In this document: positions 27,699 to 52,848 of the stretch, in pieces
Layout: every line of letters begins with the position of its first letter
Position numbering within the stretch: the stretch's first letter is position 1
DNA from: Pezicula radicicola
Taxonomy: Eukaryota > Ascomycota > Leotiomycetes > Helotiales > Dermateaceae
NCBI GenBank assembly: GCA_003008705.1
Contig: PDUO01000028.1
Coordinates: forward strand, 379,214-443,213
Direction: 5' to 3'
Length of the DNA: 64,000 nucleotides
The notes under the pieces: model-generated
The model's database searches: none
Told to the model about the DNA's origin: nothing
Seen by the model: the letters and a program-made list of their open reading frames with translations, nothing else
Program-made: the position numbers and the translations under genes

Positions 27699-29388
27699 CT
27701 AGCGGTACGAGCGGTGTTTCTTCTTTCCCTTCCCTTTGTCGGATCTGCTTTCACGTCGTTGTCTCGTTTCTTGTTGTGCTTCTGCCAGATTTGGCAACGA
27801 GATATCGTCAGAACATTCAGGTTCTTCTTGTACGACGACTTCGTTGTTATGAGATGAAGCTGGCCAGTTTGCGGCTTGGGTATTAGGATCGTAGTATCGA
27901 TATGCCACCGAAGGGCTCCCAGCATTGAAAGTATGGTCATAATTCTGATCAGACCGATATGTCTGTTCTTCTTGGGGGGCAGTGGCTGAATCCTGATATG
28001 AGGTCTCGTACTGAGCTTGAATTTTCCCATAGTAGCCAGTGCTGGATAGATTCTCGGAATAAGCTTCTTCTGTGGGATAGCTTGAATCTGGATTGGTTGC
28101 ATATTCAGCGACTGCTCCGCCGATTCCTACAAGATAATTCTCTGTTGCACGAGGTGTCATATCTCCCGAGTTTGCCGAAGAAGTACCTAAGAAAACATAC
28201 TGGAAGTTTTGGTTCAAAGCCGTCATCGAGGCACTATCGACATGCCCAACGTCCTTGACCTTGACGTTCGTTTCGATGGTGTACACCTTCCTGTAGTTGA
28301 CAAGCGATGGATCCTGTAGGTGGGCATTTCCGGCTGACAGAACAACTTTTAAAGCTAGAGGCAACAGACCTTGTACTGTCCGTGGCATGTCTTTGCTGTA
28401 GATAAACCCATGGTCCCCGAGAGTAATTCCGAATTTCTGTGCTCCTAAGCGATCGTAGGAATAGACCGGAAGACATGTGCAAGATTTGTCGCCTTCTCTG
28501 TATTTGACAACAACAAAGCGGCGTACTTTTGAGTGAACCTTTTCCTTGTAGATAATTTCGCTTACAAACGTTGGATCTACTCTGCCCGTGTTGATGCCAA
28601 AGCCTTCTGTCCATAGTGTGCTGAACACTCTACCGACCCGAAAGAACTTGGTATAGTCCTTATTTCTGACCTTATAACTTTTGTCGAGCTTCTCTACCTG
28701 TCCCTCGGTACCCCTAATATACCGTGGATGGGGCTGCGAAGGGTTCCATGAGGCGGTGCCATGCTCTAATGGAAGTGGCTGATTTTGTGGTGGGGATGAA
28801 GCTAGGGAATAGTTGCCACCTAATTCCAAGTTGCTCATACGGGCATCTATTGTCGTGCCCTCCGAGGGATCCGAAAACTGGCTCTCGGAGCTATGATAGG
28901 CCTGGGCTTGGCTATAACCACCAGCCGAATGGTATTCTATATCCCTAGATGGACCATGACTCTGATATGCACTGCTGCTGACTTCATCATACACAGTTAC
29001 ACTGCCTGGATCTTCGGCATACGTTCCTCCGGCAGCTGTGTGTTCCCTTACAGGCGATCTACCTCCTACTTGTTGATAGGAGCTAGTCGAGGTCGTCCCG
29101 GTAGTGCGAGGTGTTTGTTCTTCATGGCGACTCGAAGATCTGGTAGCAGTTAGCAAAAGTGCTACATTTGAGAGTTGCATTACACCATACCCCGCTGCAC
29201 GATGTGAACTGCCTCTTGCTTCTGGCCCATATTGCCGGAAAGTATTTCCTCCTGTACAGGATATTAGCACTTCTCAAAGTCGGATTTGCTTCTTGTAGGG
29301 AGTAACTACTGGAATCTATCCGTTTTGTGTAAGTCCTCCCAGCACTGTCCCTATACTTCTGTGCATCTGCCCTCTTTACATCTGCCAT
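27699..29388 (-). CDS. DUF6590-domain protein, module A
   Basis: This belongs to the fungal DUF6590 family, whose molecular function is not known to me. The large exon 29251-27699 is certain. I join it to 29388-29307 through a 55-bp intron (donor GTTACT, GCTAAT branch, acceptor TACAG), which gives about 544 residues. The N-terminal half is disordered, Ser/Tyr/Gln-rich. The DUF6590 core spans roughly residues 225-400: FFRVGRVFSTLWTEG, YKEKVHSKVRRFVVVK, SCTCLPVYSYD, ITLGDHGFIYSKD, and KVYTIETNVKVKDVGHVD. A second disordered region leads to DDISLPNLAEAQQE and a Lys/Arg-rich tail (KGKGKKKHRSYR), a possible nuclear signal. Unlike copies B and C the tryptophan-containing first exon is not evident; an alternative first exon at about 29540-29435 is possible. 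The coiled-coil gene A is divergent. Confidence 0.8.
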
Positions 29389-30596
29389 GGGTGCATGGGG
29401 GTACAGGTGTGTGGTGCAATGGATTGGACCTGTCTAGGACGGGGGAGAGCATTGCGCATATCACTATGCAGCAGCGCCCATTTATCATCGGAAGTTCGAC
29501 TTGGCGGCTCTGCGATAGCAATAGAGGGGTTGTCCATATCGAAGGGAGGGGGGGAGCATCACCACGTGTCAGAGCCAAAGGGTTGCAGATGCATCAAGGA
29601 ATGATGTGCTTGCTGCTTGACGGAGAAATGAATGGCGAAAGGCTAGGTTATATGATGCATGAGATACCTAGACGGCAGAGAGAGATATGCACGGTAGAGG
29701 CCCTAATGATAGGCCCAGAGGTCACAAAGAGGTCAGGTGAACCTCCACGTCGAGAGTGTAGAGGTGTAGAGGTGTAGAGGTGTAGAGGTGTGAAGTTCAG
29801 CATGGAAAAGCGGCGCGGTGGGGCAGATTCTCACCCCTGGCTTTGGGCCCTAGAGGGACGCGCGGGTCGGCCCATGATAAGAGAGAAGTGATCAACTTCC
29901 GTACGTCCAGTACTTCGGGACTGTATCTTTCGTACATACCTCCGTGTATGAAGTTACAATTATGGAAGTTTGCAGCTTGTTATTCGTCCCAACTAGGAAG
30001 TGTAACAAGGTCGCTGCCCACGTAGGCTATTTTTAAGAATATAATTACGAGTATATCTGTATTTCTTCCCAGCTTCCCAAGTCGGCGCAAGCCAGGGCCA
30101 GGATACCTAAGCTCTACGGTAATCATTGCTACCCACTGGACAATCTCTGCGCCTCCCCCCCACACTACCGGTAATGATGACCGCATATTGAGGAGATTAC
30201 ACCAGGCGTGTTTATATCAAACGAATTCTTTAGACCCAATGGCACGGATTGAGCTAGGCCAGTGCGTACGCCGCCTTGAAAGCTAAACACCTACTTTTCA
30301 TTCCCTGCAAAGCCCTTCGAATAGCCTACCCAATCATATTTTGCTGGTAGACACTTTGCAATCTAAAAACCTTCCATGACCTGTTCTCAGAGAATGGAGG
30401 CTCTTTTCGTACACTCGACTCCGGGACTACACTGGTCCTCGGAGCCTCGCTTTCAACACCTCAGCACTTACAACGTTCTTCACTGTACTACCAGCGGATG
30501 TACTACTTAGCAGAACTGTACTCGGCTTTTGAAATGCCGTGACCAGTATTTCACAGAATTAAAGCCAAGCAGATCAGATGAACAAAAAGCCCTTCT
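29389..30596. promoter_or_regulatory. Shared upstream region of module A
   Basis: About 1.2 kb between the divergent DUF6590 and coiled-coil genes of module A. It includes a tandem array of GTGTAGAG (four perfect units at 29756-29787, plus one degenerate). Part may hold an alternative first exon of the DUF6590 gene. I found no motif obviously shared with the module B and C spacers by eye. Confidence 0.5.
29756..29787. repeat. 8-bp tandem repeat (GTGTAGAG)4
   Basis: Four perfect consecutive copies of GTGTAGAG, followed by a degenerate fifth (GTGTGAAG). It lies in the shared upstream region of module A. It may be polymorphic in copy number. Confidence 0.85.
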
Positions 30597-32285
30597 ATGG
30601 CCAATGGACACTCCTCGCACGACTCTCGGAGTGTTGGCGCATCGACACCAAAAGTGGAAAGTGTCAAAACAACACACAACTCTCCACCAAGATCATCCCC
30701 CGACAGCTCAACTTACGGTGAACCGCCAGTTTTGTTAAGTTCTATTAAACATAACGGTGACAGCCCGTTTGTGGAGAGACATCAAGAGAATATTAATCAG
30801 CCTTTGCAGCATCTTCACACCAAACAACCGGATTTTTATGGCCATGACAACTTGCCACTCCTCGAAAGCCATATGAGTCTGTCTCCAGAACATCGATTAG
30901 ATGGCAGCACAACACGTGATACAGAGACATTCTCTCGGGGACATGGTGCTATCAATCGTGCGTCAACAGCCCAAAGTAACAGCGATGGGAGACTGCAGCA
31001 GAAGGCTCGTCAAGACTCAGGCTACCATGATGAAAAGCCGCACCTTGATGTTGAATTGCAGGCAAGAAACATCAGGGCTCGGGAGCGTGTTGAGATCCAG
31101 AGGGGTCGAGTTTGGCGGACGCGACGATTGCTTAATGAAAGTAGACAAGATGTACAGAGACCACGAGCACGGTTGCGAGATGCGACGGCGGAGTTGATGG
31201 CAGCACTTGATACTCTTATGGCTACAGGCGATCTTCATCAGCTTGAATCGCTCGTTCCATTTCACCAAGAAGTTCGTGCCGCCCAAGATGAACTAGGTCC
31301 TCTTGAGGATGTTCTTGACACGTTGGAGATTCGGTTGAACCACGAAGAAAGCGAATTAGAGCAAGAAGAAATGCACTTCTACCGCAACTATAATATCTCG
31401 CTTGAGCCGCCTTCCGATTCAAAATTAGACGAACCGCTCTCACCGCTCTATAAGCCGTACGAGCCAGACGATGAATATGATGGCCTGGACCTTGAGAATG
31501 AACTGGTGCAGCAATATCTGTCAAGTAAAGGAGAGGCCGAGAATCTAAAAGGGAAAATCGACGAGTTAGAAGACGAACAATACAGAATTTCCACCGAACG
31601 CGCATTCCGCATGCGATACAACCTTCCACTCTCCGAAGAAAATTCGAAATTCCTTCTAACCTTTCCAGATACTCACAAGGAAGCGTTAGATAAGTTACAA
31701 CTGCTTGAAGACCAGCTTGCCGAGCTTCGCGAACGTTGCCTTGAAAATGAGTTATTTGGCGAGGACGACTACCTCTACGAGCCACGCGACGCGCTTGTCG
31801 AGGAAGTCATGGATTCTGTCAATGAAGCACTCGAGAGATCGCCTCTACGCGCAGCAAGCCTTCAGCATACGCCGTATCTCAGCTCACGCGAAAAAAATTA
31901 CTCCGACAAGCGCGAGTACGTGAATAAGTGGCTCTTGGAGTGGGTTCAGGACTCAATGTTAGAAGCACACAAGTTGAAGGAGTGGATATATTCTGAATAC
32001 CCAGCGAGTATGGGCGATCTAGCAGCCGAGCAATGGTCTACATTGGCTTTGGAATTTTGGGACAGTGATAAGGCTGGGGAGAAGACAAATCTGTTCTATG
32101 AGTTGGACACAAGGGAGGCAGTGAGCGGTTCGCAAACTAGCAGAGGAAGCAGTCTCGATGCAAATATCGAGGACGATATTTTAGGGAGCTTCGAAAACAT
32201 TTGTTATAGTGGGAGCGATGGGGCCTCGCAACGGACGCAAAGAGATGCACATATTGTAGGATCTTCCAAGGCATCAAGCTGGTGA
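30597..32285 (+). CDS. Coiled-coil protein, module A (partner of DUF6590 gene A)
   Basis: An uninterrupted frame of 562 codons. I do not recognise a named family. Residues 1-145 are low-complexity and Ser/His/Gln-rich. From about residue 150 the protein is highly charged and heptad-like: NIRARERVEIQRGRVWRTRR, AAQDELGPLEDVLDTLEIRL, and ELEQEEMHFYRNYNISLEPP. A Pro/Asp-rich hinge (SPLYKPYEPDDEYDG) follows, then a second helical stretch to LRERCLENELFGEDDYLYEP with RDALVEEVMDSVNEALERSP. It ends with DKREYVNKWLLEWVQDS and LALEFWDSDKAGEKTN, then a disordered tail. No membrane segment or signal peptide is seen. It is divergent from the DUF6590 gene. The same pairing recurs at 38.4-42.9 kb and 49.2-52.8 kb, so co-function is likely. 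Confidence 0.82.
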   Translation: MANGHSSHDSRSVGASTPKVESVKTTHNSPPRSSPDSSTYGEPPVLLSSIKHNGDSPFVERHQENINQPLQHLHTKQPDFYGHDNLPLLESHMSLSPEHRLDGSTTRDTETFSRGHGAINRASTAQSNSDGRLQQKARQDSGYHDEKPHLDVELQARNIRARERVEIQRGRVWRTRRLLNESRQDVQRPRARLRDATAELMAALDTLMATGDLHQLESLVPFHQEVRAAQDELGPLEDVLDTLEIRLNHEESELEQEEMHFYRNYNISLEPPSDSKLDEPLSPLYKPYEPDDEYDGLDLENELVQQYLSSKGEAENLKGKIDELEDEQYRISTERAFRMRYNLPLSEENSKFLLTFPDTHKEALDKLQLLEDQLAELRERCLENELFGEDDYLYEPRDALVEEVMDSVNEALERSPLRAASLQHTPYLSSREKNYSDKREYVNKWLLEWVQDSMLEAHKLKEWIYSEYPASMGDLAAEQWSTLALEFWDSDKAGEKTNLFYELDTREAVSGSQTSRGSSLDANIEDDILGSFENICYSGSDGASQRTQRDAHIVGSSKASSW

Positions 32286-35200
32286 AGCATTTAGCGAGGG
32301 CGTTATATCCTTTTTATTTCGGAATTGATAGTTATTTATGTTCTATGTTTTTGGGGGGCGGGGCTTTTGTAGTATTACTTACCCAGCGGTACTGGGTTTT
32401 GGAATAGATCCGGGCCATAGAGGTTGGGGTGTAGGGGAAAGTTCTTGGTTTTGGGACTGGGTATCTGGTGTTCATGTGTATTCCATTCCAAATCATGACG
32501 ATCCAACGAATTTCCTTTGTTTACCTTTGTATGTTTCTCTCTTTTTCTTCTCTTTAGACTGTAAAGGAAGTGGTGGCTAGGCGTTCTCTCGTCGAATACC
32601 ATTTGCATATAGACAATTTCCTTTTTTCGCTCCGCGATTACCTAGGAATGTAGGGCACATTCTTGCAATTGGTCGTTCAACACCCAGATACTCAGACACC
32701 TAAGCTCAACATATCACTTTGTTCCTCAACAACACAGAGATATTTGAAGCTTCACTGGTCGGATTCATACGGCAAATACCTATACCGGAGTTCAAAACGA
32801 TAGATGCCGGGCGAGTTCAAGTGCCCGGCCAGTTACAACCCGTACTAGCCGACTAAAAGTGAAGCCTCCTCTTAACAACTCAATTAGCAACTAGGATAGT
32901 TCTTCTACCGGGCATTCGACCAGCAGCATTTGATGTATCAAATAACTAGAGATCTTGCCCTTTACAACATCCAATCATCTCATCTCCACACGAGGAGTCA
33001 CACCGATTCAGTCAGCCCAGCGTGCTGTACATAATAGGATACCAGCAAAATAATTCTGTAGCCCGAATGCAGTCTTTTTCACAAGAGCAAGAAATATCCA
33101 AATCCAATGGTTCAAGAAGGCGAACGGGTATCAGCTCGGGCACCATACACGGTGATGATAGAACCTGGGCCAGCAGCTCCGTCTATATGAGAAAATCGGA
33201 AAGCTGTGGGCACTAGGCAGGCAAATCAGTAGGCGATTTACGAGCAAACAAAGGCTATGATACACAGCTTATCCAATCTCATGATCTAATATCAGATATT
33301 GGATATTGCTAATCCCAGCATCTGAGATTTGCGGCGAGCTGAAAGATTCTACACCTAGCTAGCCATAGGAATTAGGATTTGCCCAAGGCCCGAAATACGT
33401 TACCACTACTGCCGATAAGTAGGAACACAATTCGCCACTATTCTACAAACGAGTAAAAATGAGGAGAGTCTAGAATTTCATCTCTTTTGCTAGATCGGAT
33501 CAAACAACCAATACTCTAAAGACTATCCAATCTAGTGATTCAACGCATGTATGCACAGTACAGTACACCGCTACACTACACCTCCAAAATGACGCATCAT
33601 ACGAGTAAAATTCCCATCCCAGCTTTCCAAGGACCAAAAGACGCACAATGAGCTGTCAAAAAAGACAAGTTATAGTTAATTGCTAAACCTTCAAAAAAAA
33701 GTTCTCCGAAGTTTCTAGAGACTAGAGATCGTGGTGAGATTTGGTTGAATGGATACTACAAAAAAAGGTTATTTAGATATATAGTATCCGAGAGTCGGAA
33801 TATTTGAAAAAAGCTTAAAAACTCTTTTTGTGGGGATCATAAGATGGTATGGTATGGAGTATACCCTAGTGGTATCATAAAGAAAGAGTATTGGCTGTGT
33901 GTTGTGGGTTGATGTTTGCTCAAATAAGCGGTCAGGAGAAAGTGAGGCTGCAAGCGAGGCAAGATAGGGATAGGGATAGGGATATGGATAGAGTTACCGC
34001 AAATGCAAATGTACGTATGGTACGGAACGGAGTACTACTATAATGCGTCTAGGGTTCGCTGCAGCGCAGAAGCCCTTGTGTGTATCCGATATGGAAGGAT
34101 TAGTTTCTTTTCTTTTCTCCTTTTCTTTTTTCGTTCCGTGCCGGAGAGGGGTATGATAATCCGTGCCAACTGATTTTATTCGGGGAGCACGGGAGTGTAA
34201 ATATTAGATGGAGTGGAGCTTTATTGGGGTTGACCGATGATTTATTTTCTTTGTTTATTTTTGGTTTGGATGCGAACTGGTGGGGGTTTGGTTGGGTTGG
34301 GATCGTTTGCTGTCTTTTCTTTTTCTCGCTGACTTCTTTTGAACTGTGTTGGTAATTGTACGAGGGGGATATGCTGTGAATCGGGCGTAGTATTACGGTG
34401 TAAGCACTGAAATGAAGTAATATTATACGAGGTTCTTTGTTTTGATTATTAATTGAGTTTATTTATGATATCTCGGAACTGATTCTTTTGGCCTGGTAAT
34501 TGTAAGAAGAAGTTCCGAGCCTATTGCTTCTCAATGGCGTAACATTCCACAGCGAAGGAGTAATGAAACACGTTTACAAAATACTCAAGGAGAGAGGCAT
34601 TTGAATAATGTGGCTATTTGCTAACTTGTAAGCAACTGTTGTAAGCAAAGCTAAGATTAGAATTCGAATCTGTAAGCTGGTCAGATGTTTAATCATAGAA
34701 GGTGACTTATTATGTGCTCTATTATGTACACATCTGCATATTCTCTGTGTAGAAACATAGCCAAAGCTGACGTAGAAAAGTAATAGTAGAATTGAAACGC
34801 AAAAATCTTGGATTTGTTAGGAGGCTTTTTGATTTTCATAGTAAACAAGATGAGTTAAAAATAATTCATATCTGGTTAATAATATATCTTGTAAGAAATC
34901 TAGACTGCTACATATACTATAAATTATAGAATTTCTTTTGCTTTTACCTTTATACTATTCTACTCAATTGTTAAGTACTTAATAAGATAAGATAGAAATC
35001 TAAATATCTTTATAAACTCAAGATAGTTATAATTATAAGAACAATATAAGTATTCGAGTTAGTAACTAGTGTAATTAAGTTTCTCTATTATATTCTATAA
35101 GAGAGATAAGCTTAGAATATTATAGTAATATAAACTATATATATTCGCAAGCCATTAGTTATTATATATAAAGCCAACTAAATTTGCTTATTAATTTATT

Positions 35201-38200
35201 TGCCAAGAATTGTAAGAAAGAAAGCAGGCTATTAAATAGCTCTTAGCAATCTAATGTAGTTACTATTTGATATCGAGATCCCCTAAGTAAATAGTAAACT
35301 TAGAGAAACATTTTAGCCTTTTTTTAGGCTAAAGACATAAGCACCTACGTCTGAGATCAAACAGGATTCCTTAGTCCATCTTAGCAGGAATTAACTTAAT
35401 GATTTTTCTTTTAACTTGGTTCGTGTAGTAAGACGAACCACCCCCAAGGCTTGTTCTTGATTTCTTGTGTAAACCGCAAACAATGCGGAAATACATAAAG
35501 AGAATATAGTACTAATGCTATGTTAATGTTAAAAAGACAAGCAACGCTATGATCCTTTATAGTTTTATCACTAAGGATTTCTTGAAACCTAACCTTATTT
35601 CTCTCCTATCAAGAACTCTTCGCTGTTAACTCTCTAGTTTCTACGTAGTGAACAAAGCTTTCTGTAGGGGGGTATCTTGGCAGCATCTCACAAACCCCTT
35701 GATATAATAATGCTATTGCCGAGGTGTTAAGCTTAGTAGCCTTGGATCACTTTCACAAGTATCCCGGCTTCTTGGTTGATCCGATAGCTCTGGGCAGCAA
35801 CACATAGCAATATGCAGTCAAATTAGGCTATATTCTGGATATAGAACACGTATGGGTCGCTTCAAGCATTGTTATTTCCATGAGTTGGCGCCGAGGTTCC
35901 AACAATAGCTCATAGGCCGAAATCAAAGTATCCAACATCATTAACCGATATGACCTGACACGGTTACGAAATAATTTCCCCATAATGGACTTTGATTTGT
36001 AAATCTTTCCGCAGTGACTGGAATCCAAAAACATCGCAGCCGCTCGATACGTCGTCGCTTAATCGTACAAATACCCGAGTTTGGCTTGGCTACTACCTAG
36101 CCCATCACAGAATTGAAACGTGCATAAAAGAACTAACAAATTACATTTATTCTCTACGAGCACTCAAGATGTGACTTCGGGAGTTGAATCAGCCTCATCT
36201 TCAAAGATCGTCCCAGTATTCATCACTGTAGCCTCGCGCCAACAGCCTTGCATTAAACGTGCTTCGCAACCAATGACTGGACATAATTAATCAGAAAGGA
36301 AATAGATCGAAAACTTAAAGCAGCGAACGGAAAGATGTAGAGTACTGTAAGGGTGGGTTTATCATTCGTCTAGCTTAGCCTGTATGCCATGCAGCCTTCT
36401 GCACTCAGCCAACTTATGCCAGCAACCCGTTTATCCCTAACTTATTGCATATGCAGCCTGATGTAGGTCAGATGCTCAGCTTCACGGGAAATTTGCTTGA
36501 CGAGATGCATACTCTGGGCCCTGGAGTGGCCTTAGGCTGAAGATAAAACTGTTACACAAATTGATAATACTCATAGTGATGACGTGCGTGATGCTAGTGT
36601 GGAATATGTAATTCGAGGCGAATGCCAACGTTTTTGGCATCATACTGGTTTTCGAAGTTACTCGCAAGGGCTAGTTGCAGCTTGACAGCTTCCTGTAAGG
36701 TAGGTAAATCAGACTTAAATACCGAATAACTGATAAGACTAGACTATGTATAACTGCTAATTCATTGAGAGATAGCTATAGAATTAATGACGCGACTATA
36801 CGGCCATTAGTGTTACTGTGGCTAAATAGAAAAGTAGTACATAAGGGTTATAATTAATGTCGCATTATAGCTTTAACTGGATATAGATAAATTCAGCTCT
36901 GAAGAGAATGCAAGATTATGAAGATAGGCTGTGTATATCAATGTTCTAGGTTGATCTAACTGCTGACAATCTGTCTGACGTTGTGTTACCAGCCCATTCG
37001 GTCTTTACTGTACCTTGAGAATATACGCGAAAAAGTCACTCTAATTATTGTATTTGATATCAAGGCTTCCGGGAACATTACTTGACACTGTATCCTGCGT
37101 AGAGATTAGTGAGCGATGGATATATTCCGAGAATTTTGTGTCAGTTCTCACAAGTAATAGATCTCACTTAGATCTTGAGAATGCTATTTTTAGAAAACCC
37201 TGCGTGGAACGAAATCGCTCCTTGGGCCCTGGATTTGAGAACTGATAAGAGCCTGTAGCCTTGTAGGCTGCAAGGCTAGGTTTACCTAGTTCTTGTTGCA
37301 AGAGTTGAAAACTACTGTTGCTTTTGGGCCTTTAACTTCAACTTCTTGTAGACTCACAAAGGAAATAAATAGCATAGAGCAAATATTTTAGTTGCTGGTA
37401 TGTGCTGCAAAGATTGCAACCATCTCTCTGGGATGCATATCAGATTGCTAGGACACAAAGGCAAAAATGGAAGAAAGCTCAATGGACAATTGGGATTTAT
37501 AGCCATAGTGCAAAGACAAAAACGAGCAAGCAGCTATGGTAGTTTGGAAATCTATCTTGCGTATTAGTGACAATTGAGACTCAACCTTCGAACACAAAGT
37601 TGAGAGTAATCCGGAGGGAGGCGCCAAACAGACAATTAATATGAATATGAAGCGCTTCAAGCCGCAGGTCTAACCATAACGCAATATGTAGTGTTAATGA
37701 TGATTGTAAGGCGAGTTACATGTTCTGGATTGAGTTATATGCTTGCATAAGCGTCATTAAATGAATTTGCCATGTGCTGTTTTACAAATAAACTGCCAAC
37801 AACTGGTACTCCCTTGCAATGGAATTATAAATGCTAATTCAATTTGTAGATTGGAAGCCTACTCGTATTCCCCAAATATCAGAAAAAATTGGTCTATTCC
37901 TAACGAGTAAATTGCCGAAGTTGTAAACTTATCTTATAGCAAGGTATCTGACGATAAAAAAGACCGGAAAAGAAGCCCGCAGTAACGCTGCCCAAAATAT
38001 TATCGTAGGAAAAACGCATCAAGAGGGAAAATCGGACGCAGTTGTTAGAGACCCCTAACTTAAAAGAAAATCGAGATGTCATAAAATCATTAGGCGGCCC
38101 TTCTGGTTAAAAGTATTGGCCGTAAAACGGATTGCTAAAGCAAAATTGCTTAGGCAGACGCATAGAATGCGATAACGTAGTCATGAGATTATAGTTTCTC

Positions 38201-38399: not shown

Positions 38400-40267
38400 T
38401 CATCTTCGCCTGTCATCCTTGCGTTTGTGATGCTTTTCATGTCCTTGCTTCCCAGACGTTGTGCTTTTTCGCCGTTTCCTGTCACTCTCTTCTTTCAGAA
38501 TTTCCTGCGGCGTTGGCAGTGTGATATCCTCTTGGTCATTATCCTCTTCAATCACCACCTCGTCATTGTTGTCCTTTACTGGACGAGAATAGTTGTCTAC
38601 AATTGGAAGCTGCTGGGTATAGCTAGAGGTTCTATTGTCTGCCGTGGAATAATCATCGTTATAGTCATATTGAGAATCGCTCGGTTGTTGAGAGTAGTCA
38701 AAGTTCTCGACCGGAGCTTGTCCTGTTGGGTTAGAGCTCGAGTATGTTGAGGCGGAGCCCCACCTGCTGTCGGAGCTTGTAGTATACGTATTTTTTGGAG
38801 TACTGTCGCTGGCATGGTTTGAATATGATGCCGGGTCCCCATATGTTGATACAGCATGAGAGTCCCCGACACCTGCAAGGGTATCTGCTTGGGTGCCAGA
38901 AGGCCTTGGGAGTGGATCTTCTATGTCATCGTCATTGTCCACAAAAACTTCTTTCCAGTATCTCCGGAGTAGCTTCCGTGATTCCGAATCTAGATCACCA
39001 ACATCTTTAACTTTAACGTTTGTCTCAACTGTATAGACCTTTCCATAGTGAACTAATGATAATCTTTCATCGATGCGGCCTCCAGGGGATAGCTTGATTC
39101 GTAATGGGATCCTAGCGATTCCCGAAATTGCCTTCGGTTGCGATTTTGCGTAGATCTGCCCATGTTCGGTCAAGTTGATACCTTTTTTCTTGTATCCCCT
39201 TCCATCATATGTTGTCACAGGTAGGCAGCTGCAGCATCGATCACCTTCCCGAACAACGACGAACCTTCGGATTTTGGAATGGACCTTTTCTTTGTAGGCA
39301 ACAATAGTTATATTGCTAAGGAAAGTCCCATTAGGATCGGTCTCTCTGGCTGAGGTACCTTCGGTCCACAGGGTACTGAACACTCTACCCACTTTGAAAA
39401 AAGTCTTCCAGTCAGTGTTCCGGACACGATAGCTTGAATCCAACTCCTCTTTTTGGCCACCTGTACCGGCAATATAACGATGAGAGGATGGGTCAACAAG
39501 TTTCCCCTTGTCCTGATATCGAGTTCTTTCACCATATGACTGAGGGACTGGTTGCCATTGTTCCGCCTGTGGCTGGGTTTCATACACAGCCGATTGTGCC
39601 ACAGATCTAGTTGTTGGCAAGGATTGATATTGAGTGCTATATCCGGCTTCCTGAGTTTGGGGAAATGCTGATGATGCTGTTTTATACGAGTCATCATATT
39701 CCGTCACCGTCAATTTTCTGACATCGTCTGCCAGAGAATCCGGAGGAAATGTTCCCTGAGCTTGTGCCCAACTGGCAGGTCCCGAGTCCCTGTATAGTGT
39801 CCTGCCATAGCCTCTAGTAGATTGCTCTGCTCCCGAAGTATATCGAACTTCGTGTCCACCTGCATCGTAGTATTGCTTGCCCCTTTGAGAATTTGAGTAC
39901 AGTTTCTGACTTTGATGTAACGATGGTCCAGAACGCGGTGTCTCGTATGTACGACTGCTTTGGGTCCCAAGTCAGTTATAAGAATCACTGAAACAGAAGA
40001 CAGGTAAATAACTCACTCTATGGAAGGTTGAGCTGTATATGCAGCAATCTTCGGCTCCGATTCATCGGAATATTGCAACCATGTCCTGCCATCTAGAGTG
40101 ATTGGTTAGTAGAAAAGCAATAATTCATCCTCCATGTAAGCCAAGCCACTCAAGTGACTCAAGTGTCAACAGAGGGGTATAAAGTAGTACTTACCACTGT
40201 CTTGCCAATGATAGTAACGACGCCCGGTCTCGTGCTCAATTATCCAGGGAGAGGCATACGACGACAT
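38400..40267 (-). CDS. DUF6590-domain protein, module B
   Basis: Three exons, 40267-40195, 40092-40017 and 39954-38400, join in phase (donors GTAAGT and GTGAGT; acceptors CTCTAG and AAGCAG) to give 567 residues. Exon 1 encodes MSSYASPWIIEHETGRRYYH, the Trp/aromatic N-terminal motif also seen in module C. A Tyr/Ser/Gln-rich linker follows. The DUF6590 core lies roughly at residues 215-390: FFKVGRVFSTLWTEG, YKEKVHSKIRRFVVVRE, RCCSCLPVTTYDGRGYKK, NLTEHGQIYAK, and KVYTVETNVKVKDVGDLDS. A disordered Ser/Thr/Tyr-rich tail contains QEDITLPTPQEIL and a basic terminus (HEKHHKRKDDRRR). Core and tail motifs match copy A closely. Function is not known to me. The tail suggests, but does not prove, nuclear location. 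It is divergent from coiled-coil gene B. Confidence 0.85.
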
Positions 40268-41080: not shown

Positions 41081-42893
41081 ATGGACCATAGAAGTGTTTC
41101 CTTTTTGGAACTGAAAAACCGTTTATCCACAGGTAAACCTTCCAAGTACGAACTTCCAAAGACCGGCAATATTGCTGGTGCTTGCAGGCTTCACCGGTAC
41201 GGAGAATGTTGATTCGCACCATTGTTCCATCTCCTGTCAAAAACGTCTAATATCGAACTGCAAAAGCCCGGTACTTAAGTCGAACGAGAAGTTGGGCCTC
41301 ATTCAGGATCATGAATTTGCGGATCCTGGTTATGAGCTCAAGACGATGCAGAAAGACAATGATGGGCACTGGAAAGAGCCCTCCTCGCTGGGGAAAGATG
41401 ATTTGCACCCTCAAGATGCATCACAAGATGCAGCTCTCGTCTCGCCACCTCCTAGCATGCTCAACAATATTCAAGGACCTCGGGGGCTGCATTTGAAACC
41501 ATCCCCGTCGAGCATATTTCAACCTCAAGTGGACGTAGATGTCCAGGCAAACAATATACGAGCGCGAGAGAGGGTCGAAATAATGCGTGGCAGGGTGTTT
41601 CGATCGCGGCGTAAAATACAAGATGTGAGGGAGGATGTACGACAACTCCGAGAAAGGCAAAGGGAAGCCAGTGCGGAGTTAATGAAAGCTACATATCAAC
41701 TTATGGCTTTGGACAACGTGCAAAACTTAGACAGCCTTCGACCCTTATTTAAAAAGGCAAGCGACGCGCAGGACGAATTAGGCCCCGTCGAGGAGGAATA
41801 TGACCGCATAGAAAGTCGCCTCAGCTATGAAGAGCAAGAGCTCGAGCAGGAGGAGAAGTTTTTCTACACTCACAACAATATAAGCCTTCGACCACTTCCT
41901 GATGAAGAACTTGAAAGGTCGCTGTCCCCACTTATTAAGCCATACGAACCTGAGGACGAGCCACAAAACGCCAGTCTGGATGATGAGAATGTACAGGCTT
42001 ATCTCCTCCAGATGGCAAAGGCACAAACCTTGAATGATAGTCTTGACAAGATGGAGATGGATTATTATAAAGTCACTGAAGAAGCGCGATTCCGTAGACG
42101 ACATGATCTTGAACTCTCTAGGGAAAGCGCTACTTTCCTCGCTAAATATGACGATTTGCATCAAACAATAACCGACGAACTATATGACGTAGAGGACGAG
42201 TTGTACAACCTTCGAGACCGGTGTCTAGACCTGCATCTCTTTGGTGAAGACGACTACGTGTATACTCGTCGCGATGCGCTTGTTGAAGATATCATGGAAT
42301 CAGTAAACGAAGCGCGTAAACGTTCGCCACTACGCACCGCTGCTCAACGCCATTTACACGAACCCGATTTTTCAGATAAACGCGACTACGTGAACGCGTG
42401 GATGTTGGAAGCGGTTCAGGATTCTACCTTCGAAGCCCACCGCCTGAGAGCCTACATATACTTCGAAGTTGCACATCCACCCCAAAGAAGCGATCAAGGA
42501 AAAGACCAAGAGATTGAGCAAGCGAAAGAATTAAACGAAGATCAGTGGCCGGATCTAGCTATGAGTTTATGGGATAAAGACATGGCAGGCACCAGGACGA
42601 ATGAGATTTACATGCTCAGCCAGATGGACGAAATTACCGGAGGGGCTGAAAAGGATTCTTCGAAAACAACTAAATTAAGAGATGGGAAAAGTTTTGGGAG
42701 TGACAAAAAGGACAGAAGTGTGTACCTTGAAGACGAGGACTTTGTAGATATTGAGACTATCGAAGGTCAGGCCGAGTCTATTATCACTAAGCGATCTGAA
42801 TTCACACCAAATACCACAGAGCGACGGCCATCTAATGATGCCGAGAACATCAGTTCCCCAAACGAGAAATTTCAGGGGTTGCGAAGCACTTGA
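41081..42893 (+). CDS. Coiled-coil protein, module B (partner of DUF6590 gene B)
   Basis: The main exon is 41188-42893. I add exon 1 at 41081-41132, whose donor (GTAAAC) and acceptor (TTGCAG) join in phase across a 55-bp intron, giving 585 residues starting MDHRSVSFLELKNRLSTG. Without it the first in-frame ATG is at 41346. The protein is a clear paralog of the module A partner. It has VQANNIRARERVEIMRGRVF, DAQDELGPVEEEYDRIESRL, LEQEEKFFYTHNNISLRP, the hinge SPLIKPYEPEDEP, LHLFGEDDYVYTRRDALVED, DKRDYVNAWMLEAVQDS, and MSLWDKDMAGTRTNE. The regions between these are heptad-like and strongly charged. No transmembrane segment is seen. The N-terminus and the last 90 residues differ most from copy A. 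Confidence 0.8.
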
Positions 42894-45034: not shown

Positions 45035-46110
45035 ATGGCCCAAGAGTATGTCTTCCCTCTCCCGAAATGGTGACAGGTTTGAACAGAGTACGGTTGCCAT
45101 TGAGACTTCCGCTAATCTTGTATCATAGATTCACCCCAGGATCGACCGGGGCGATAGTTGCTGGGGAAGAAGGCTCCCAAAAGATCTTTTATGTTCGCAA
45201 GGAAATCCTCGAAAAGTCGCCTGTCATAAAAGGATGGATTGAAGAGCCAGATTCTATGCCCGAATCATTGCGAAAGAACGGAGCACTCTGCCTTTCCAGC
45301 TGCAAACCCGACGTTGTCCGCACTCTTATCAGCTATCTGGAAAGAGACGGGACTTCATCCGACGACGATTTTTTAATGAACCGACCATTCTGCAACTACA
45401 CAATCAGGATCCCCTTTTCTATTTCAAAGTCTACAAACTTGCTGGGAGCCTTGCGTGAGTACTCACTGCCTCGCCTTGCACTTATCATTACTGACACTCG
45501 CTTCTCTGGATCCAGAGTTGATGGCCTCTGCGTTGTGACCCTGCGCAAAATCCAGGCCTGCAAATATAACACCGAAACTTTCATTAGCATCGTAATTGAA
45601 GCCGAACGAGGAAAGTTGATCGAAGTTCCACGCTTTCGCGATTGGATGATCACATATGTAACGCAGAATTTTGGGACCCTCAGCGAGTCTAAGCTTCTCC
45701 AAGGCACTATCAAAGAAGGTGGCCAGAACTCATGGATAATCTGCTCGGTTCTCATGTCGTGCTTGAGCCATCTCGGGGCAGAATCTACCCCAAAACGGGC
45801 TCAGAGCGCAAGATCAACTTCGAATCCATTTCCTGCTCCACCTTCATCTTCGAGCCGGTATGCGGGTTTTCAATGCTTTCCAACTCCATCTTATTGGTAA
45901 TAGTAATAGTAATAGAGCAAGTTTCGACTAACGAAATATAGCAGCCCATCTTCAGGCTCATACTCTACCACGCGGCATAGTAGGTCGTATTCAAAGAGTT
46001 TTCAAAAGTCCCCAGACCTAAAAACTAGCTCATACCGTGTTGATAAGAAGTGTGAAGCCAAGAAGAGAAATCTGAACGTTACTATAGAAGATGCAACATT
46101 ATCTGAATGA
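45035..46110 (+). pseudogene. BTB/POZ-domain protein with a one-base frameshift
   Basis: Four exons are visible with good splice sites: 45035-45045, 45129-45454, 45516-45857 and 45942-46110. The N-terminal BTB-like part reads IFYVRKEILEKSPVIKGWIE and LCLSSCKPDVVRTLISYLER. After the T run at 45369-45374 the protein-like sequence continues only in another frame (NQDPLFYFKVYKLAGSL), then VDGLCVVTLRKIQACKY and a Ser/Pro-rich C-terminus ending ATLSE. The summed exon length is one base short of a multiple of three, which fits loss of one T from the T6 run. BTB proteins act as adaptors for Cul3 ligases or as transcription partners. This copy is either a recent pseudogene or contains a sequencing error. 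Confidence 0.7.
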
Positions 46111-46699
46111 GAGGATTGTACTCTAGGTACTAATCCCTAGTTCAAAGAGTTACTGTTTAAGGTGGAGCGTATCAATACAAGGCTACTCAGAGACCGAATT
46201 AAGTACAAAGAAAAGAATCTACTCTATAATATAAGAAGAACCTAATCCCCCAACGACGAGAGAACCAAGAGTTCTGATCAATCACGTAAGCATAAGGGTT
46301 GGGGAGCGTCGAGATTCTGACGATATTGCGATAATTACGCAACATAAAGGCACGTTCAGACTAAAGCTTGTCTCATGTACATTATGAACTCTTACCCTTA
46401 GTATGCATATTTCCTATACCTCTATTACCTCTATTATTACACCTAGATTCAGATGCCTTTATATACCTCTCTAAACTGCCTCAGAAATACTTTCTAGAAG
46501 TGTGAATCGTAACTAGTAAAGCTGTCTTTTCATCTATACCCGAACTTACAATATGTCAAAATCCTGTGTGGTACACTATTCTATTACTAGCTGCAGGTGC
46601 TCATCTCCAATTGCGCCAACTTAGCCATGAGATCGCTATGCTTTTCACGACCCTTCCATCGCTAGACTTCCAATTATTCGACGCAAGAAGAAAAGAATC
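46111..46699. other. Intergenic, AT-rich
   Basis: This lies between the BTB gene and the FAD-oxidoreductase fragment and is TA-rich, with no coding signal. The last 100 bp may be the original promoter of the oxidoreductase. Confidence 0.4.
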
Positions 46700-47068
46700 A
46701 TGACTGACTCTACCTCTTCATACATTATAGTTGGTGCTGGTGTTTTTGGGGCATCAACTACCCTTCATCTTATCAAGAAATATCCTTTCGCAACTGTTAC
46801 CTTGATCAACAGAACTATTCCATGTCAGGTCGCAGCCTCATGGGACTGGAGTAAGGTCGTCCGCGCAGATTACACAAACATCTTCTACATGAAGATGGCT
46901 CTTGAGGCGATGGAATTCTGGAGGACGGATCCATTGTATCAGCAATTCTATCATGAGAGCGGCTTGGTTTGGGTTGGCGATCAGTGGTTTGCTCGGACCG
47001 TTATTAACAATTATAGACTCTATATTGCTTCCTATTCAACGGGTTATAAACCCGGACAGCTCTTCTAA
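46700..47068 (+). pseudogene. Truncated FAD-dependent oxidoreductase (DAO / sarcosine-oxidase type)
   Basis: Only the first 110 or so residues of an amine/amino-acid oxidase are present. The sequence begins MTDSTSSYIIVGAGVFGAST, the dinucleotide-binding GxGxxG fold. It continues with CQVAASWDWSKVVRADYTN, EAMEFWRTDPLYQQFYH and ESGLVWVGDQWFARTVINNY. Full family members are about 400-450 residues, with a catalytic domain and C-terminal FAD-binding segment that are missing here. The frame runs into unrelated residues (YIASYSTGYKPGQLF) and a stop, after which TA-rich relic DNA begins. A related 30-bp segment (CTATATTGC..CCATTCAAC) recurs at about 47989, so the 3' part may have been displaced or lost by an insertion. 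Confidence 0.75.
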
Positions 47069-49170
47069 ATTGCAATAAGGCAATTAATTAATTACGTGTT
47101 TTATCCGTTTCCTAGTGCGATGACTAGTATATCCTTAAGTCCTACGCAGAGCCGTAGGCACTGCTATTTAAGCCTATGTAGAGCTATAGTATTATTATCA
47201 TTAAGTTGTGACAATTTAAGCCTCTAGAGTAGGCAATTTAGTGTTACGCAGATCCGTAATTACTGTGCAGAGACACCCCTATTTACTAAGTCAAGTGCAT
47301 AGAGCCGCACTAATTAACTAATTCGAACTAAGTCAAAAGCCATTCCCTGCAAGAACTATAAAGAAAGATCATCCTTATTATCCTCCAAGTATAAAGAACC
47401 CTAACCTTAAGTTAATCCTAAGCGCGATCTCTCTCCTCCTCTAATTAAGCCTATAGTATCGTTGTCTAACAACAGCCTCTAATTACTACCTATATAGAAG
47501 CTTAAGGGCGAACACAGCTACCCTACATAGAAAAAGAACATACAGCGTCTACTTGCTAGTGTTAACCTTAATAACTATATTAAGAAAGACATTATAATCC
47601 TAACTAAGGTTAAAAGGGGTTATACTAAGTATAAGGAATATAAGGAGTTTTATAAGAAGGATTTATAAGCCTAACTTACTATCTCGATAAATATCACTAA
47701 TTTAAACATAAAGTCTCTTATTGCTATTCGACATTATTTAAACTCGTCAGGAAATCAGGGGTGTACTATTTCAGATATGTAAAAAGGGATAGAAACACAT
47801 ATAAAAGAGAGCTGTTTGTCATTATTAAGATGCTATAGCGTAGACTACTCATATGCCTCTTTAGGGGTGTGTTAAATTCAGCGAATATATGTGATTGGTC
47901 ATGTAACTGCCACTATAAGTAGGCTCTTCACACACACTTAGCTCCACGCAGAACATAGAATCCATCACTATTGGCACCACATATTGCTGTCTATATTGCC
48001 TCCCATTCAACAACTTGTAAGCCAATAGTATTTTTATGATAGCAGATCCCACAGCCACAGACTTCAATCATTTATCGGGAATCGGAGGAAGCCGCGTAAG
48101 TAGGTAGGTAACAATGGTCAAAGCTATATGAACAATTATAATAATAAATTTCGGTAGTTATCTTTGTACGAAGTTCCAATAATCATGAGATCACAGACTC
48201 GCCTCAAAATCTCCATCACAATCGGACTTCCGCCTCATTGTTGATCTTAGTCGGAGACTGGACCCCAAAACTGGTTCTAATTCGCCAAGCGCAGCGAGGA
48301 ATAAATAAAGTTCCCTAGTTCGTTTTTCGCTACCTGTATAGTTTGGGCAGATAAGCATTTGTGGTTCATGTAACTTCTATGCAAGGTGCGGTTGGCTTAT
48401 TGGCCGCCTTGCAGTAGATAGAAGATGCATTGTACAGGCAAAGTCGGGGCGTGATGGGGGAGAGTTAGAAAAGAATGTTTGCTTGAAAGAGCGGTGATGG
48501 ATTTTGAGTAAATGGAGTGGATGGAACGTGTTGGAATTGTAAGGCGAAGAAGCGGTGTATTATTGAAGACATGAGACTATGGGTTTGGACCATGTGATTG
48601 ACTTTTGGGAAGTCTTAGACCGGCACTGGAAGTTTAGAAGATGTGACGTGATTATCTGGTTACAGAAATATGCGAATTTTGCAGTAAATTGATTTACGCA
48701 CGTAAATATTCACAAATGGGACTCAGAGCTGTTGACCGCAAATCATTTTCATAAAACGTTAAACAATTTCAGGTCCATGAGATAGCTGGAACCGTCCTGA
48801 TATTAAGAACGAAATATCACTAGTGAATAAATGTAATTGTTCCGTGTGCTTTCTCCTTCAAAGCTACCAATCTCGCAGATAATAAGATTTTGTGGTTCCG
48901 ATCGCTGTTATTTCTTCCGAAAATGTTCGTAGGCCGTAAGTCTTCGTAAATAACAAAAAACAGGAAAAAGAAAAAGGCTGCAGAAGAACCAAGAAAACGA
49001 GGACTTTGGAAGATGCCTCGAAAGACGTCTGCTCCTCAGAGCAGTTTGGCGTAAAGAAGACTAATTCATAGTGCTTCTTAAAATACGCAACGTATAAGTG
49101 GCGTTCTGTACGGGTTTGTTGTTTCCAGATATTAGAATAGTCCATCATCCCATCAGGTCCCATGTAAGAA
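47069..49170. other. AT-rich relic DNA between oxidoreductase fragment and module C
   Basis: From 47069 to about 47850 the sequence is TA-rich with no usable frame, as expected for a RIP-mutated insertion. From 47860 to 49170 it is mixed, with the 3' flank of DUF6590 gene C at the end. No gene was recognised. Confidence 0.45.
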
Positions 49171-50619
49171 TTATTTTCGGTCTTTGCCTGAACGTGAAGA
49201 GTTTTTGTAGTTCTTGTCGTTCGACTTTTTACGCACATCAGGCCTGGGCCTACCAATAGGTTCGACCTTTGTACTCTTCACAAGCGAATTGGCATCGAGT
49301 ATAGCAAGCCAGTCCTTGTGTACCATCCCAATGTTGAGAACACGGACATATTTTTCTACGGTGTATAACTTGCTGTAATTAAGCCTGGAAAGATGGCCCA
49401 GATCTCCCTCAGATCCCTTTTCATGTCGGTTAACCTTGATAGGAAGTCTGGTCAATTGCTCGGTATACCGTATTCCATCACACGTAATGGAATGGGGTTC
49501 TGGTGGCTCAGAGCTGGTATAGATTATAGCATGTTGTTGTGGATCGGGGAGGCCAGGCTTCAACGTTGCTTGTCCAGAATACGTCTGGATAGGGCTATAT
49601 TTATTGGTAAGCGCTAATTTGAAATGAATATGTGTATGGACTTACCAGCAAATGTTATTACCATGGCCTTCTCTCACAACTACAAACCGTCGTATTTCGG
49701 AATATGCCTCTTGATTCAACCATGTGGTACTTATGTGCGATCCGTCACGGGTTCCACCTTCTTCGGGGACTTTTTGCGGGTTCGAATTTGCAGCTGGTTC
49801 TGTCCAAAGCATCATAAAGACCCGGCCTTGTCTCCAAAACTTTTTATGGTCTTTATCTGGAATAGCTTGGTATTCTGTAATATATTAGTGAGCTTTTTGA
49901 TACACGTTATTATCTAATAATCATACTATCACTCAGCTTTTCCAGTTTCGTCCGCTCTTTGAATGAAGATATCTTCTTTCGAGTTGGAATTTCAGGGCTG
50001 AGATTATCTGCATGAAAATTAATGAAATGGAACGAAAGTGATAGGTAGATTTCAGTTGACCTTGCTCTTGAAGCTTCACTGCCTCAATGCCTTGTGTGAT
50101 TGTTTCCAACGAGTTGGATCTATATCTTTGCCGAGGCTGAGAAGAAGACCCATTGTCATAAAAGGAATCATTCTGAGTGTTCGTTGCAGAATAATAACTG
50201 GGCTCTGGCTTTGAAGTGAACTCGGTGCTAGTGGTATCGCTAAAATTTCCAGTTGTGTCCTGGTGGTTGTAGTAACTGTAAGGCGAGGGGAAACCCGTGC
50301 TCTGTGAGGGATCATGGCTGTATGACTGCTGGGATGTTCTTATGTCGTCAGAGGTTGTGTAATTATCTGAAGTCGCCGAGTTGCTTGATGTGGTATTCAC
50401 GGAGTAGGGCTCTTGTGTATTGGCGTTAAGTGTACGTGGTATTGTGTTATCCTGGTTAGTGTAATCGGGCGAGTCGTAGTATCGCTCCTCAAGACCGCTT
50501 GGATTTATTCTCCATTGGTAATAGCAGCGACTTTGGTCGTCCCAGACCCAGTTCGACCACTGAGTAGATTGATCCCTTGACTTGCCTTTGCCACTACTAG
50601 TTGAGTATGAAGAAGCCAT
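49171..50619 (-). CDS. DUF6590-domain protein, module C
   Basis: Four exons, 50619-50061, 50007-49933, 49874-49646 and 49594-49171, all join in phase and give 428 residues. The N-terminal motif WSNWVWDDQSRCYYQWRI is typical of the family and matches module B exon 1 in type. A long Ser/Thr/Tyr/Gln-rich disordered region precedes the core: FWRQGRVFMMLWTEPAANS, EAYSEIRRFVVVREGHGN, ICCPIQTYSGQATLKPG, then HAIIYTSSEPPEP and KLYTVEKYVRVLNIGMVHKD. The tail is basic (RPRPDVRKKSNDKNYKN). Compared with copies A and B it is shorter and its core is interrupted by introns, one of them at the Cys-Cys-Pro motif, so it is the most diverged copy. Function is not known to me. It is divergent from coiled-coil gene C. 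Confidence 0.85.
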
Positions 50620-51405
50620 GTTCACCAGTCACTAATGGCATGTTTGTTGTCGTTCTAAGTGGGAATATCTACATTTGATGCGTGTCAGGATTCAAGCCGT
50701 GATATATATTCGATATACACTAATAAACCTCCATAGTCTAAGAAGAGCCGCATCCAAGATAGGTTACTTGGCGTATGGTTTTCGTATGTCAAGGGAGCAA
50801 CATCCAATGACCCCCAATTTTGGGCAGCAAAAGACAGCAAAAAGAAAGGCTGATTGATGCCCATTGCTGCCGTGGAAGATCTTGCATGCAATGCGATAAA
50901 ATGTGGGTGTTCCGTAGTGGTTGCATCTGGTTTGACCCGTTCATTTACCATATAACAGTTTTTTGTGAGGAGAACGTGGCTCGACAAGGGGGCATGGATA
51001 AGTACATGGCGCCGCTTTAAACATATCCGCCTTCATCCTTACTGCTGTGGAGGCTTCGGTCTGACCACAAGTGGGCGCAGCCTTACGCGGCTTTGTATTC
51101 CTCCTATAGATCCGAAAAAAAAACTCAAAAAAGTTAACAGTTCATAACGAGAAAGCAACCCATGGCTCCCGCATAGGAGGTGCAGACAATGCATGCATAC
51201 ATCGGCTGGGAGCTTGCCTTAAGTGCAATTGCTGGTATTTGAGATATAATATAACAGAGCACTGGTGAGCCGTGCATCTACCACTCGCTTGTAAGCAATG
51301 AACAGGATAAATTCTTCTGACTCAGATTGCAGGCATTTTTATTATATCTTGTTCATTTCTAATTAGGACCTGAAATCCCCATTATTAGTCTTCTTTCCAC
51401 TGAGG
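50620..51405. promoter_or_regulatory. Shared upstream region of module C
   Basis: About 0.8 kb between the divergent DUF6590 and coiled-coil genes of module C. Composition is ordinary. Short frames on both strands look like chance, and no specific elements could be assigned. Confidence 0.45.
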
Positions 51406-52848
51406 ATGGGGCTGGTGGCTTCAAAGATAGCACAGCGGGGAACTCAGTCAGTTGAATCAAACAATAGAGATTCCTTTTTCATGGAGGACCCAAATTCACC
51501 TCGTCTCCGACAAGACTCTCCAAGCAATAGCAACTCAGAGTTGTCTACCGAAGCTACTAAAAACTACCGATGGATCGAGCTTATGCAAAACTTACAAAAA
51601 CTATCAAGACTTCATCACCAAGGGGCCACGACGTCGGTCCTCGAAAGACAGAAGCGAATTGAGGTTGCTTTCAAACGCACCGATGTTTGGAAATCTGATG
51701 CCCTGTTTATGAGTGAAATTCAAAGGTTAGAAGCGGAAGGGAAATTAGGTCCATTTAAAGAGCTGCTTCGACTGGGGAAAGAATGTCAAGTTGCGCGGGA
51801 CACACTTGGCCCGTTGGAAGATGAACTTTCACAAATGGATCAGAGATGGGAGTCCCAGAAATTCCAACTTAAGAAGGTCGAAGAAGAAATTTACAGCAAG
51901 TTCGAAGCCGAATTTGGGCATGCCGAAAAGTATTCTCAGGGGCCAGAAAGCGAGCCCTCAACCAATTCTGTAAGCTCGTTCTATCATGAAGCCGATGAAT
52001 GTGATGGCGGGCAGGTTTATAGCGAGAGTGCAGAAACTGGCAGCAACATTGCATATCTACAGCGACCTATTATCTCAAGGTCCCAGTCGTCAAGCTTTGC
52101 ACTTCAGATGCTCTCGACCCATCCTACTTTGGACGAATTGGAGCCTACTCCACACCAAGATTCAATGCTATTGGGGTTGGATCAGAGTGCACAGAGTCGG
52201 AGTGAAGCGAGTAAAAAGGTTGGTGGCAAATTCACACAAGAAAGCCATTTAGCGGAAGCATCGGCAGAGTCTGAACTTCTGGCTCTCGGAAGCGATCAAA
52301 ATCTCGTCTTGAATCAATATTCTGCAATGGTGGATGCGAAAACATCTTCAACACGCAACCAGCTACAATTCCATGAACAAACAAAACTCGGCACGGCGAG
52401 TCACCGAATTAATTCGTGGCTGCTTGAGATACTGTTGGTTTCTCGAATTCAGGCTACTATCCTCAAAGAACGCGTCGATGCTAGTAGTACACAAAAAGCT
52501 CCGTCAAACTGGGCTCAACTTGTACTGGCACTATGGGAAATTGACGGGTCCGCAATCGATATCGAAAAAAAAGCTCGGGAAGCAAGTCTTTATCATAGCA
52601 GTGATGATGCCTCATCGTATCCAAAACCTACTCAGTCCTCGGAACCGATTCTCAGTCACAATAGCAACCAAGCCACAATGGTGTCAACCAAGCAAAATCG
52701 CACATATGTGTCAAGTCCAGACGTACTGCCCAGAGAAAGAAATCTCATGAATCCAAGACGGTCAGCACCCCCAATACTTTCACGACATCCCTCTGCTCGA
52801 TTGCACAAGATCCAGCAAGATACATGCAAGGAAGATGAGCCACAATGA
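51406..52848 (+). CDS. Coiled-coil protein, module C (partner of DUF6590 gene C)
   Basis: An uninterrupted 480-codon frame. The start MGLVASKIAQRG fits the N-myristoylation pattern Met-Gly-x-x-x-Ser-Lys, so membrane anchoring is plausible; neither paralog has this. Homology to the module A and B partners is visible in three places. ECQVARDTLGPLEDELSQMD plus a heptad-like stretch to KVEEEIYSKFEAEF corresponds to the ELGPLE coiled coil. HRINSWLLEILLVSRIQATI corresponds to the VNKWLLEWVQDS block. WAQLVLALWEIDGSA corresponds to LALEFWDSDKAG. The hinge and the FGEDDY-RDALVE block seen in A and B have no clear counterpart; that region is Ser-rich and disordered. The C-terminus is disordered and basic. 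Function unknown. Confidence 0.8.
   Translation: MGLVASKIAQRGTQSVESNNRDSFFMEDPNSPRLRQDSPSNSNSELSTEATKNYRWIELMQNLQKLSRLHHQGATTSVLERQKRIEVAFKRTDVWKSDALFMSEIQRLEAEGKLGPFKELLRLGKECQVARDTLGPLEDELSQMDQRWESQKFQLKKVEEEIYSKFEAEFGHAEKYSQGPESEPSTNSVSSFYHEADECDGGQVYSESAETGSNIAYLQRPIISRSQSSSFALQMLSTHPTLDELEPTPHQDSMLLGLDQSAQSRSEASKKVGGKFTQESHLAEASAESELLALGSDQNLVLNQYSAMVDAKTSSTRNQLQFHEQTKLGTASHRINSWLLEILLVSRIQATILKERVDASSTQKAPSNWAQLVLALWEIDGSAIDIEKKAREASLYHSSDDASSYPKPTQSSEPILSHNSNQATMVSTKQNRTYVSSPDVLPRERNLMNPRRSAPPILSRHPSARLHKIQQDTCKEDEPQ

What the first reader, a model, noticed from the sequence alone, without database searches (positions are those of the whole stretch)
27699..52848. Two-gene module present three times: a DUF6590 protein divergently paired with a coiled-coil protein
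Units A, B and C each carry a DUF6590 gene on the minus strand and an unnamed coiled-coil gene on the plus strand, starting 0.8-1.2 kb apart. I see the same domain order and shared motifs in both partners of all three units. A pair kept together through two duplications in the same head-to-head arrangement suggests an interacting or co-regulated system rather than chance neighbours. Copy A to copy B is more similar than either is to C. I know of no described role for this pairing. Whether the proteins bind each other is inference.
Basis: partly seen in the sequence, partly recalled or inferred. Interest (0 to 1): 0.9.

Follow-up and report, generated by a model that had tools for sequence, protein, structure and literature searches.

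The report
Fungal MazF-fold protein and coiled-coil partner
A two-gene unit, repeated in this fungal genome and found in related fungi, pairs a protein predicted to be shaped like the bacterial RNA-cutting toxin MazF with a coiled-coil protein that may hold or control it.

Summary
Units A, B and C each have a DUF6590 gene (-) head-to-head with an intact coiled-coil (CC) gene (+). A fourth such unit (D) lies about 114 kb outside the window on the same contig. Three single-protein searches (queries B, C, D) found the CC family at four places in the 61 Mb genome, all beside a DUF6590 gene. The pairing recurs elsewhere: 12 of 42 CC homologues have a contig of exactly the same length as a DUF6590 homologue (mean 0.10 when lengths are shifted), and one pair has consecutive locus tags in a Mollisiaceae genome. 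Distances in the two families correlate.

Best reading: a nuclear-encoded MazF-fold RNA-acting protein with a dedicated helical partner. Predicted fold and conserved pairing are well supported. Binding, RNA cleavage and an antitoxin role are inference. No paper in the searched library contains "DUF6590".

The parts
27699..29270 (-). Unit A DUF6590 gene, main open frame (523 aa as listed; upstream exon not found)
28212..28649 (-). DUF6590 (predicted MazF-fold) domain of A, residues 208-353
   Evidence: fold of the family
29271..30596 (.). Unit A stretch between the two frames (1326 bases; may still hold the unfound first exon of DUF A)
30597..32285 (+). Unit A coiled-coil partner, 562 aa: disordered N-terminus, helical hairpins 152-264 and 302-383, conserved low-confidence linker about 265-300, helical C-terminal part 438-509
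38400..39713 (-). Unit B DUF6590 gene, main exon (437 aa)
38964..39407 (-). DUF6590 (predicted MazF-fold) domain of B, residues 103-250; Arg149, Thr167 and Thr168 are the candidate active-site residues
40205..40267 (-). Likely start of unit B DUF6590 first exon (W...GRRYYHW motif)
   Evidence: joining to the main exon inferred
41172..42893 (+). Unit B coiled-coil partner (573 aa from TTG; first ATG 41346)
49171..49594 (-). Unit C DUF6590 gene, last exon (second part of domain)
49646..49874 (-). Unit C DUF6590 gene, exon with first part of domain (GRVF..LWTEP, IRRFVVV); splice sites read by eye
49933..50625 (-). Unit C DUF6590 gene, first exon frame with N-terminal WSNWVWDDQSRCYYQW motif (Met at 50619); its 3' splice point not modelled
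50620..51405 (.). Unit C intergenic stretch between divergent starts (786 bases)
51406..52848 (+). Unit C coiled-coil partner, 480 aa, distant from A and B

Best explanation
Each unit encodes a dedicated two-protein complex. The DUF6590 protein carries a MazF/CcdB-fold domain that binds RNA and probably cuts it, flanked by low-complexity S/Y/G/Q-rich arms, in many members with a basic C-terminal tail. Its head-to-head neighbour is a long helical protein that docks on the MazF-like domain, in A/B-type units possibly through its conserved but unstructured linker (PDSKLD..LSPL.KPYEP.D). There it positions or restrains the domain, as MazE does MazF. The module duplicated as a unit, and the copies diverged into partly separate pairs. 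Shown: gene pairing, its recurrence in other fungi, correlated divergence, predicted MazF fold. Inferred: binding, RNA as ligand, cleavage, restraint.
Against: No experiment and no complex model. Foldseek E-values do not pass 0.001. No sequence-profile hit reaches a curated MazF cut-off; NCBIfam gives no MazF match in 65 members; profile-profile comparison with a 7-sequence MazF set aligns one strand only, probability 10-15%. The position aligned to MazF's Thr (167) is not Thr in A, C and D; only the next residue is Thr/Ser. One very diverged stretch here (C98, below cut-off) has Asn at the Arg position. Many DUF6590 domains have no known CC neighbour, four of them here on contig C80. 30 of 42 CC homologues had no length match, including 12 of the 19 on contigs over 20 kb; only the longest contig per cluster is listed. 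Exact nearest neighbours in the two families agree in only 1 of 15 pairs, and P0047/P0126 sits in different groups in the two trees. Correlated distances can partly reflect species history.
Confidence: 0.45

Rival explanations
1. Host RNA-granule or RNA-processing complex without catalysis: the MazF-like barrel is only an RNA- or protein-binding module, and the coiled-coil protein is a permanent scaffold, not an inhibitor.
For: The arms of DUF6590 proteins are low in complexity, as in many RNA-binding proteins (comparison recalled): C-terminal tails of 58 of the 91 homologues (single domain, tail over 120 residues) are on average 58% S/Y/G/Q/P/T/N against 38% in the domains. The Thr register is uncertain. 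MazF-fold proteins are not all RNases (CcdB; a passage of PMC7180214 names MazF/CcdB among toxin folds that also target topoisomerases).
Against: The Arg is the same in 101 of 101 domains and Thr/Ser168 in 98, as expected if an active site is kept. The pairs diverge fast (A-B CC 47%), which is unusual for a core complex (inference).
Confidence: 0.3
2. Fungal toxin-antitoxin or toxin-antidote module, selfish or used in self/non-self conflict: DUF6590 is the toxin and the head-to-head coiled-coil protein its cognate antidote.
For: Predicted MazF fold; pairing of the CC family, four diverged copies on one contig; candidate docking peptide in A/B-type partners; fungal killer genes exist (Spok, wtf: PMC12693581 passages; listing). 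A gene with a SesA domain lies about 3.5 kb from the unpaired C80 cluster.
Against: DUF6590 genes without a found partner and double-domain ones exist, so a partner is not obligatory. No presence/absence data. The units look old and widespread among the named relatives rather than recently spread. The partner is not MazE-like; the genes are divergent, not an operon.
Confidence: 0.15
3. Ordinary linked duplication: two unrelated neighbouring genes were duplicated together; no functional tie.
For: All four units lie within about 170 kb of one contig. The four intergenic stretches share no 7- or 8-mer. The four copies are not independent events. 30 of 42 CC homologues had no length match.
Against: Pairing recurs in other species: 12 of 42 against 0.10 expected, adjacent locus tags EG329_011101/011102, one pair on a contig of 5,466 bases. 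Paired DUF6590 rows are spread over the A/B-type clade of the tree. No CC gene was found alone in this genome by three searches.
Confidence: 0.08

Closest known systems
MazF/PemK/Kid toxins of type II toxin-antitoxin systems (Pfam PF02452)
   Different: Domain of about 150 residues inside longer proteins (A 523, B 437 aa as read) with low-complexity arms; introns in B (inferred), C and D; below the curated Pfam cut-off; partner divergent, helical, 480-573 aa.
CcdB gyrase toxin
   Different: No CcdB family among the Pfam matches; CcdB acts on DNA gyrase (recalled), while the Arg and Thr pattern of DUF6590 resembles MazF.
DUF6590 (Pfam PF20233)
   Same: A, B, C and D are members far above the cut-off of 27 bits.
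   Different: Pfam lists it as a family of unknown function; the fold and the paired partner are this report's addition.
Fungal toxin-antidote genes (Spok, wtf)
   Same: Duplicated, diverging conflict genes in fungi would be the same kind of biology.
   Different: These are single genes coding for both activities (PMC12693581 passages; PMC10721834 start of abstract in a listing); no shared domain was tested.

Membership tests
DUF6590 (PF20233) | Match over Pfam gathering cut-off (27 bits) | tested here: met
   A 135.2, B 144.7, C last exon 65.9 bits; D 101.1 bits
MazF/PemK (PF02452) | MazF-type SH3-like barrel | tested here: met
   Predicted model only: the 50 rows shown are MazF or CcdB in Foldseek and in its re-alignment
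MazF/PemK (PF02452) | Profile match over curated cut-off (23.1 bits) | tested here: not met
   Best 19.9 bits, P0070; A 16.8 bits; none in whole genome at E<=1 while 3 of 14 control genomes ring
MazF/PemK (PF02452) | Catalytic Arg and Thr (Arg24/Thr47 in S. aureus MazF) | tested here: inconclusive
   Arg149 101 of 101; Thr167 73 of 101; Thr/Ser168 98 of 101 (domain pieces of 110 residues or less left out). Thr register rests on a short weak profile alignment, Arg register on reading by eye; residue-level structure alignment not available
MazF/PemK (PF02452) | Endoribonuclease activity on single-stranded RNA | not testable with these tools
   No bench data
Type II toxin-antitoxin system | Small antitoxin in the same operon (feature recalled) | tested here: not met
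   Partner is divergent, 480-573 aa, helical in the A model
Type II toxin-antitoxin system | Partner binds and neutralises the toxin | not testable with these tools
Known coiled-coil families (GAS, syntaxin-6 N, SH3BP5, SerRS arm) | Match over curated cut-off or clear fold match | tested here: inconclusive

The most novel reading that the evidence does not exclude
A eukaryotic, nuclear MazEF-like system: DUF6590 is an active sequence-specific endoribonuclease of the MazF fold, each copy kept in check by its own head-to-head coiled-coil antidote, with several diverged, perhaps mutually insulated pairs per genome serving conflict, self-recognition or regulated RNA decay in fungi.
Probability: 0.2. 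Interest if true: 0.93.

Novelty: new variant of a known kind. Interest (0 to 1): 0.72.

Why it matters
DUF6590 is a family of unknown function, here found only in fungi where sources name the organism, with no mention in the searched library. A predicted MazF-like barrel and a dedicated gene partner turn it into a testable RNA-acting module. If it cuts RNA under control of the partner, it would be a MazEF-like system in the nucleus of a eukaryote, and it would raise the question of whether fungi captured a bacterial toxin fold for regulation or genetic conflict.

Tried and rejected
Shared regulatory motif between divergent starts: no 7- or 8-mer common to all four intergenic stretches. Recent duplication: no direct or inverted repeat of 40 bases or more links units A, B and C (unit D is outside the window and was not compared as DNA). 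Bacterial or viral DUF6590 relatives: 17 and 23 pattern matches, none a relative; CC in viral contigs: 133 pattern matches, none a relative. Defence-system models: no match for four proteins. PDB by sequence: three low-complexity matches, best E 0.35. Fold of the CC protein: no specific match. Acidic [DE][DE]I.LP tail motif as a pairing mark: in 22 of 91 homologues, 4 of 13 paired, so not specific. N-terminal W..YY motif: no Pfam match above cut-off at it in six proteins. Third protein search with a mixed CC alignment gave 3 proteins; candidates were capped there and in the CC A search. A recalled resemblance of the P0025 N-terminus to fungal STAND N-terminal domains was not confirmed by Pfam.

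Papers: 'DUF6590' 0 papers, 'PF20233' 0; MazF with fungal 109 papers, 15 listed, none in that listing about a fungal MazF relative as far as title and abstract start show; further searches: 9 listed; 12 of 30,298 listed; 12 of 18; 10 of 33. PMC4041440, PMC7180214 and PMC12693581 were seen as passages only; other papers as listings.

Full report
OBSERVATION. The window lies at G000:C73:379214-443213 of a 61 Mb assembly in 152 contigs. All three units are real. DUF6590 is found in A and B within single frames and in C over two exons. The CC frames of 562, 573 and 480 aa are intact and have no Pfam domain above cut-off. CC A and B share 47% over 379 aa; C is distant but related. Divergent starts are about 0.8-1.3 kb apart. 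A small exon with a W...GRRYYHW motif puts the likely start of DUF B at 40267.

BEYOND THE WINDOW. A fourth unit, D, lies at C73 about 261.2-265.1 kb: DUF6590 (-) in two pieces and a 535-aa CC frame (+). It appears to share the DUF6590 intron position with C (both break just before the PI.TY stretch) and the N-terminal W motif. Searches of the whole genome with CC B, C and D returned 2, 3 and 3 places, together four (A, B, C, D); all four sit beside DUF6590. Each search sees only fairly close relatives, so more distant CC genes could be missed. The Pfam search for DUF6590 returned 15 stretches: six belong to the four units, four lie on C80 (two of them in one gene), and five weak or partial ones on C47, C70 and C98. 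No CC-like frame was seen beside these in the frames of at least 130 aa listed for L031-L034 and L036; L035, the far part of the C98 region, was not listed.

OTHER FUNGI. A protein search with DUF6590 B gave 91 proteins; where a source names the organism it is a fungus, mostly relatives such as Cadophora, Phialocephala and Mollisia (order Helotiales, recalled), also Hortaea. CC A gave 42 from a capped candidate list, again fungi where named. For 12 of 42 CC proteins the longest contig has exactly the length of a DUF6590 hit's longest contig; shifting the lengths by 1-300 bases either way gives a mean of 0.10 and at most 2. From the same tables, 7 of the 19 CC proteins on contigs above 20 kb match and 12 do not. 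The shortest shared contig is 5,466 bases. In Mollisiaceae sp. DMI_Dod_QoI the two proteins are EG329_011101 and EG329_011102. The count is a lower bound, because only the longest contig of each cluster is listed. Orientation in those genomes could not be seen. Relatives of the C- and D-type CC proteins also exist elsewhere (P0135, P0134).

CORRELATED DIVERGENCE. Over 15 pairs (four here and 11 of the 12 matches; one with a truncated domain was left out) the DUF6590 and CC distance matrices correlate, r 0.86, p 1e-4; without C and D, 13 pairs, r 0.50, p 0.001. Own A falls among the same five relatives in both quick trees, and C with D in both. Against this, exact nearest neighbours agree in only 1 of 15 pairs, and P0047/P0126 sits in different groups; that contig holds two DUF6590 hits, so the wrong one may have been taken. 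Species history also contributes. In a tree of 106 domains the 16 paired rows lie in the A/B-type clade (14) and with C/D (2); they do not form one clade (3 changes, reached by 103 of 500 shuffles). Domain pieces of 120 residues or less were dropped before that tree.

THE PARTNER. The CC A model has a disordered N-terminus, two helical hairpins with high confidence and a weaker helical C-terminal part (pTM 0.42). Its closest structures are generic hairpins. The linker between the hairpins (about 265-300) has stretches below pLDDT 50 (267-272, 280-295) but is about as conserved as the helices (0.62 in 281-300 against 0.14-0.33 in the blocks of 1-140). That pattern suits a peptide that folds on a partner; this is inference. 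C and D show no clear copy of it in the four-row alignment.

MECHANISM. The likeliest picture is a complex in which a MazF-like barrel acts on RNA and the CC protein holds or restrains it. The low-complexity arms (58% S/Y/G/Q/P/T/N in the C-terminal tails of 58 of 91 homologues) could point to an RNA-granule or nuclear RNA setting, which keeps the non-catalytic rival alive. A toxin-antidote role is possible but not specifically supported.

KNOWN AND NEW. No paper in the searched library holds 'DUF6590' or 'PF20233'. Fold assignment and conserved pairing appear to be new on the basis of those searches. By membership tests it is a DUF6590 protein; it may work like a MazF but is not shown to be one.

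Noticed in passing
G000:C73 about 261.2-265.1 kb (L029:5173-9071): Fourth head-to-head DUF6590/CC unit, outside the window.
   Followed up: yes
L032:8159-8890 and 9043-9507 (C80): SesA-domain frame (E 3.2e-40) and a frame with a below-cut-off NPHP3_N match, a few kb from the C80 DUF6590 cluster; looks like a fungal NLR-type gene.
   Followed up: partly
L032:2654-4681 (C80): DUF6590 gene with two domains in one frame of 675 aa; tandem domains recur in other fungi (for example P0001, P0025).
   Followed up: partly
L031:171-1442 (C80): DDE-type transposase frame (DDE_3, E 6e-8) near the C80 DUF6590 cluster.
   Followed up: no
window 46001-48000 and 16001-18000: AT-rich stretches with repeat-induced-point-mutation-like dinucleotide indices; a short FAD oxidoreductase (DAO) frame starts at 46700.
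   Followed up: no
window 19096-20373: Two-copy direct repeats of 96 and 53 bases (80% and 91% identity).
   Followed up: no
window 24807-26501: 564-aa open frame with no Pfam family over cut-off beside unit A.
   Followed up: no
L034, L035 (C98 453-459 kb): Three very diverged DUF6590-like stretches in one place, two below cut-off, these two with an in-frame stop (possibly introns).
   Followed up: no
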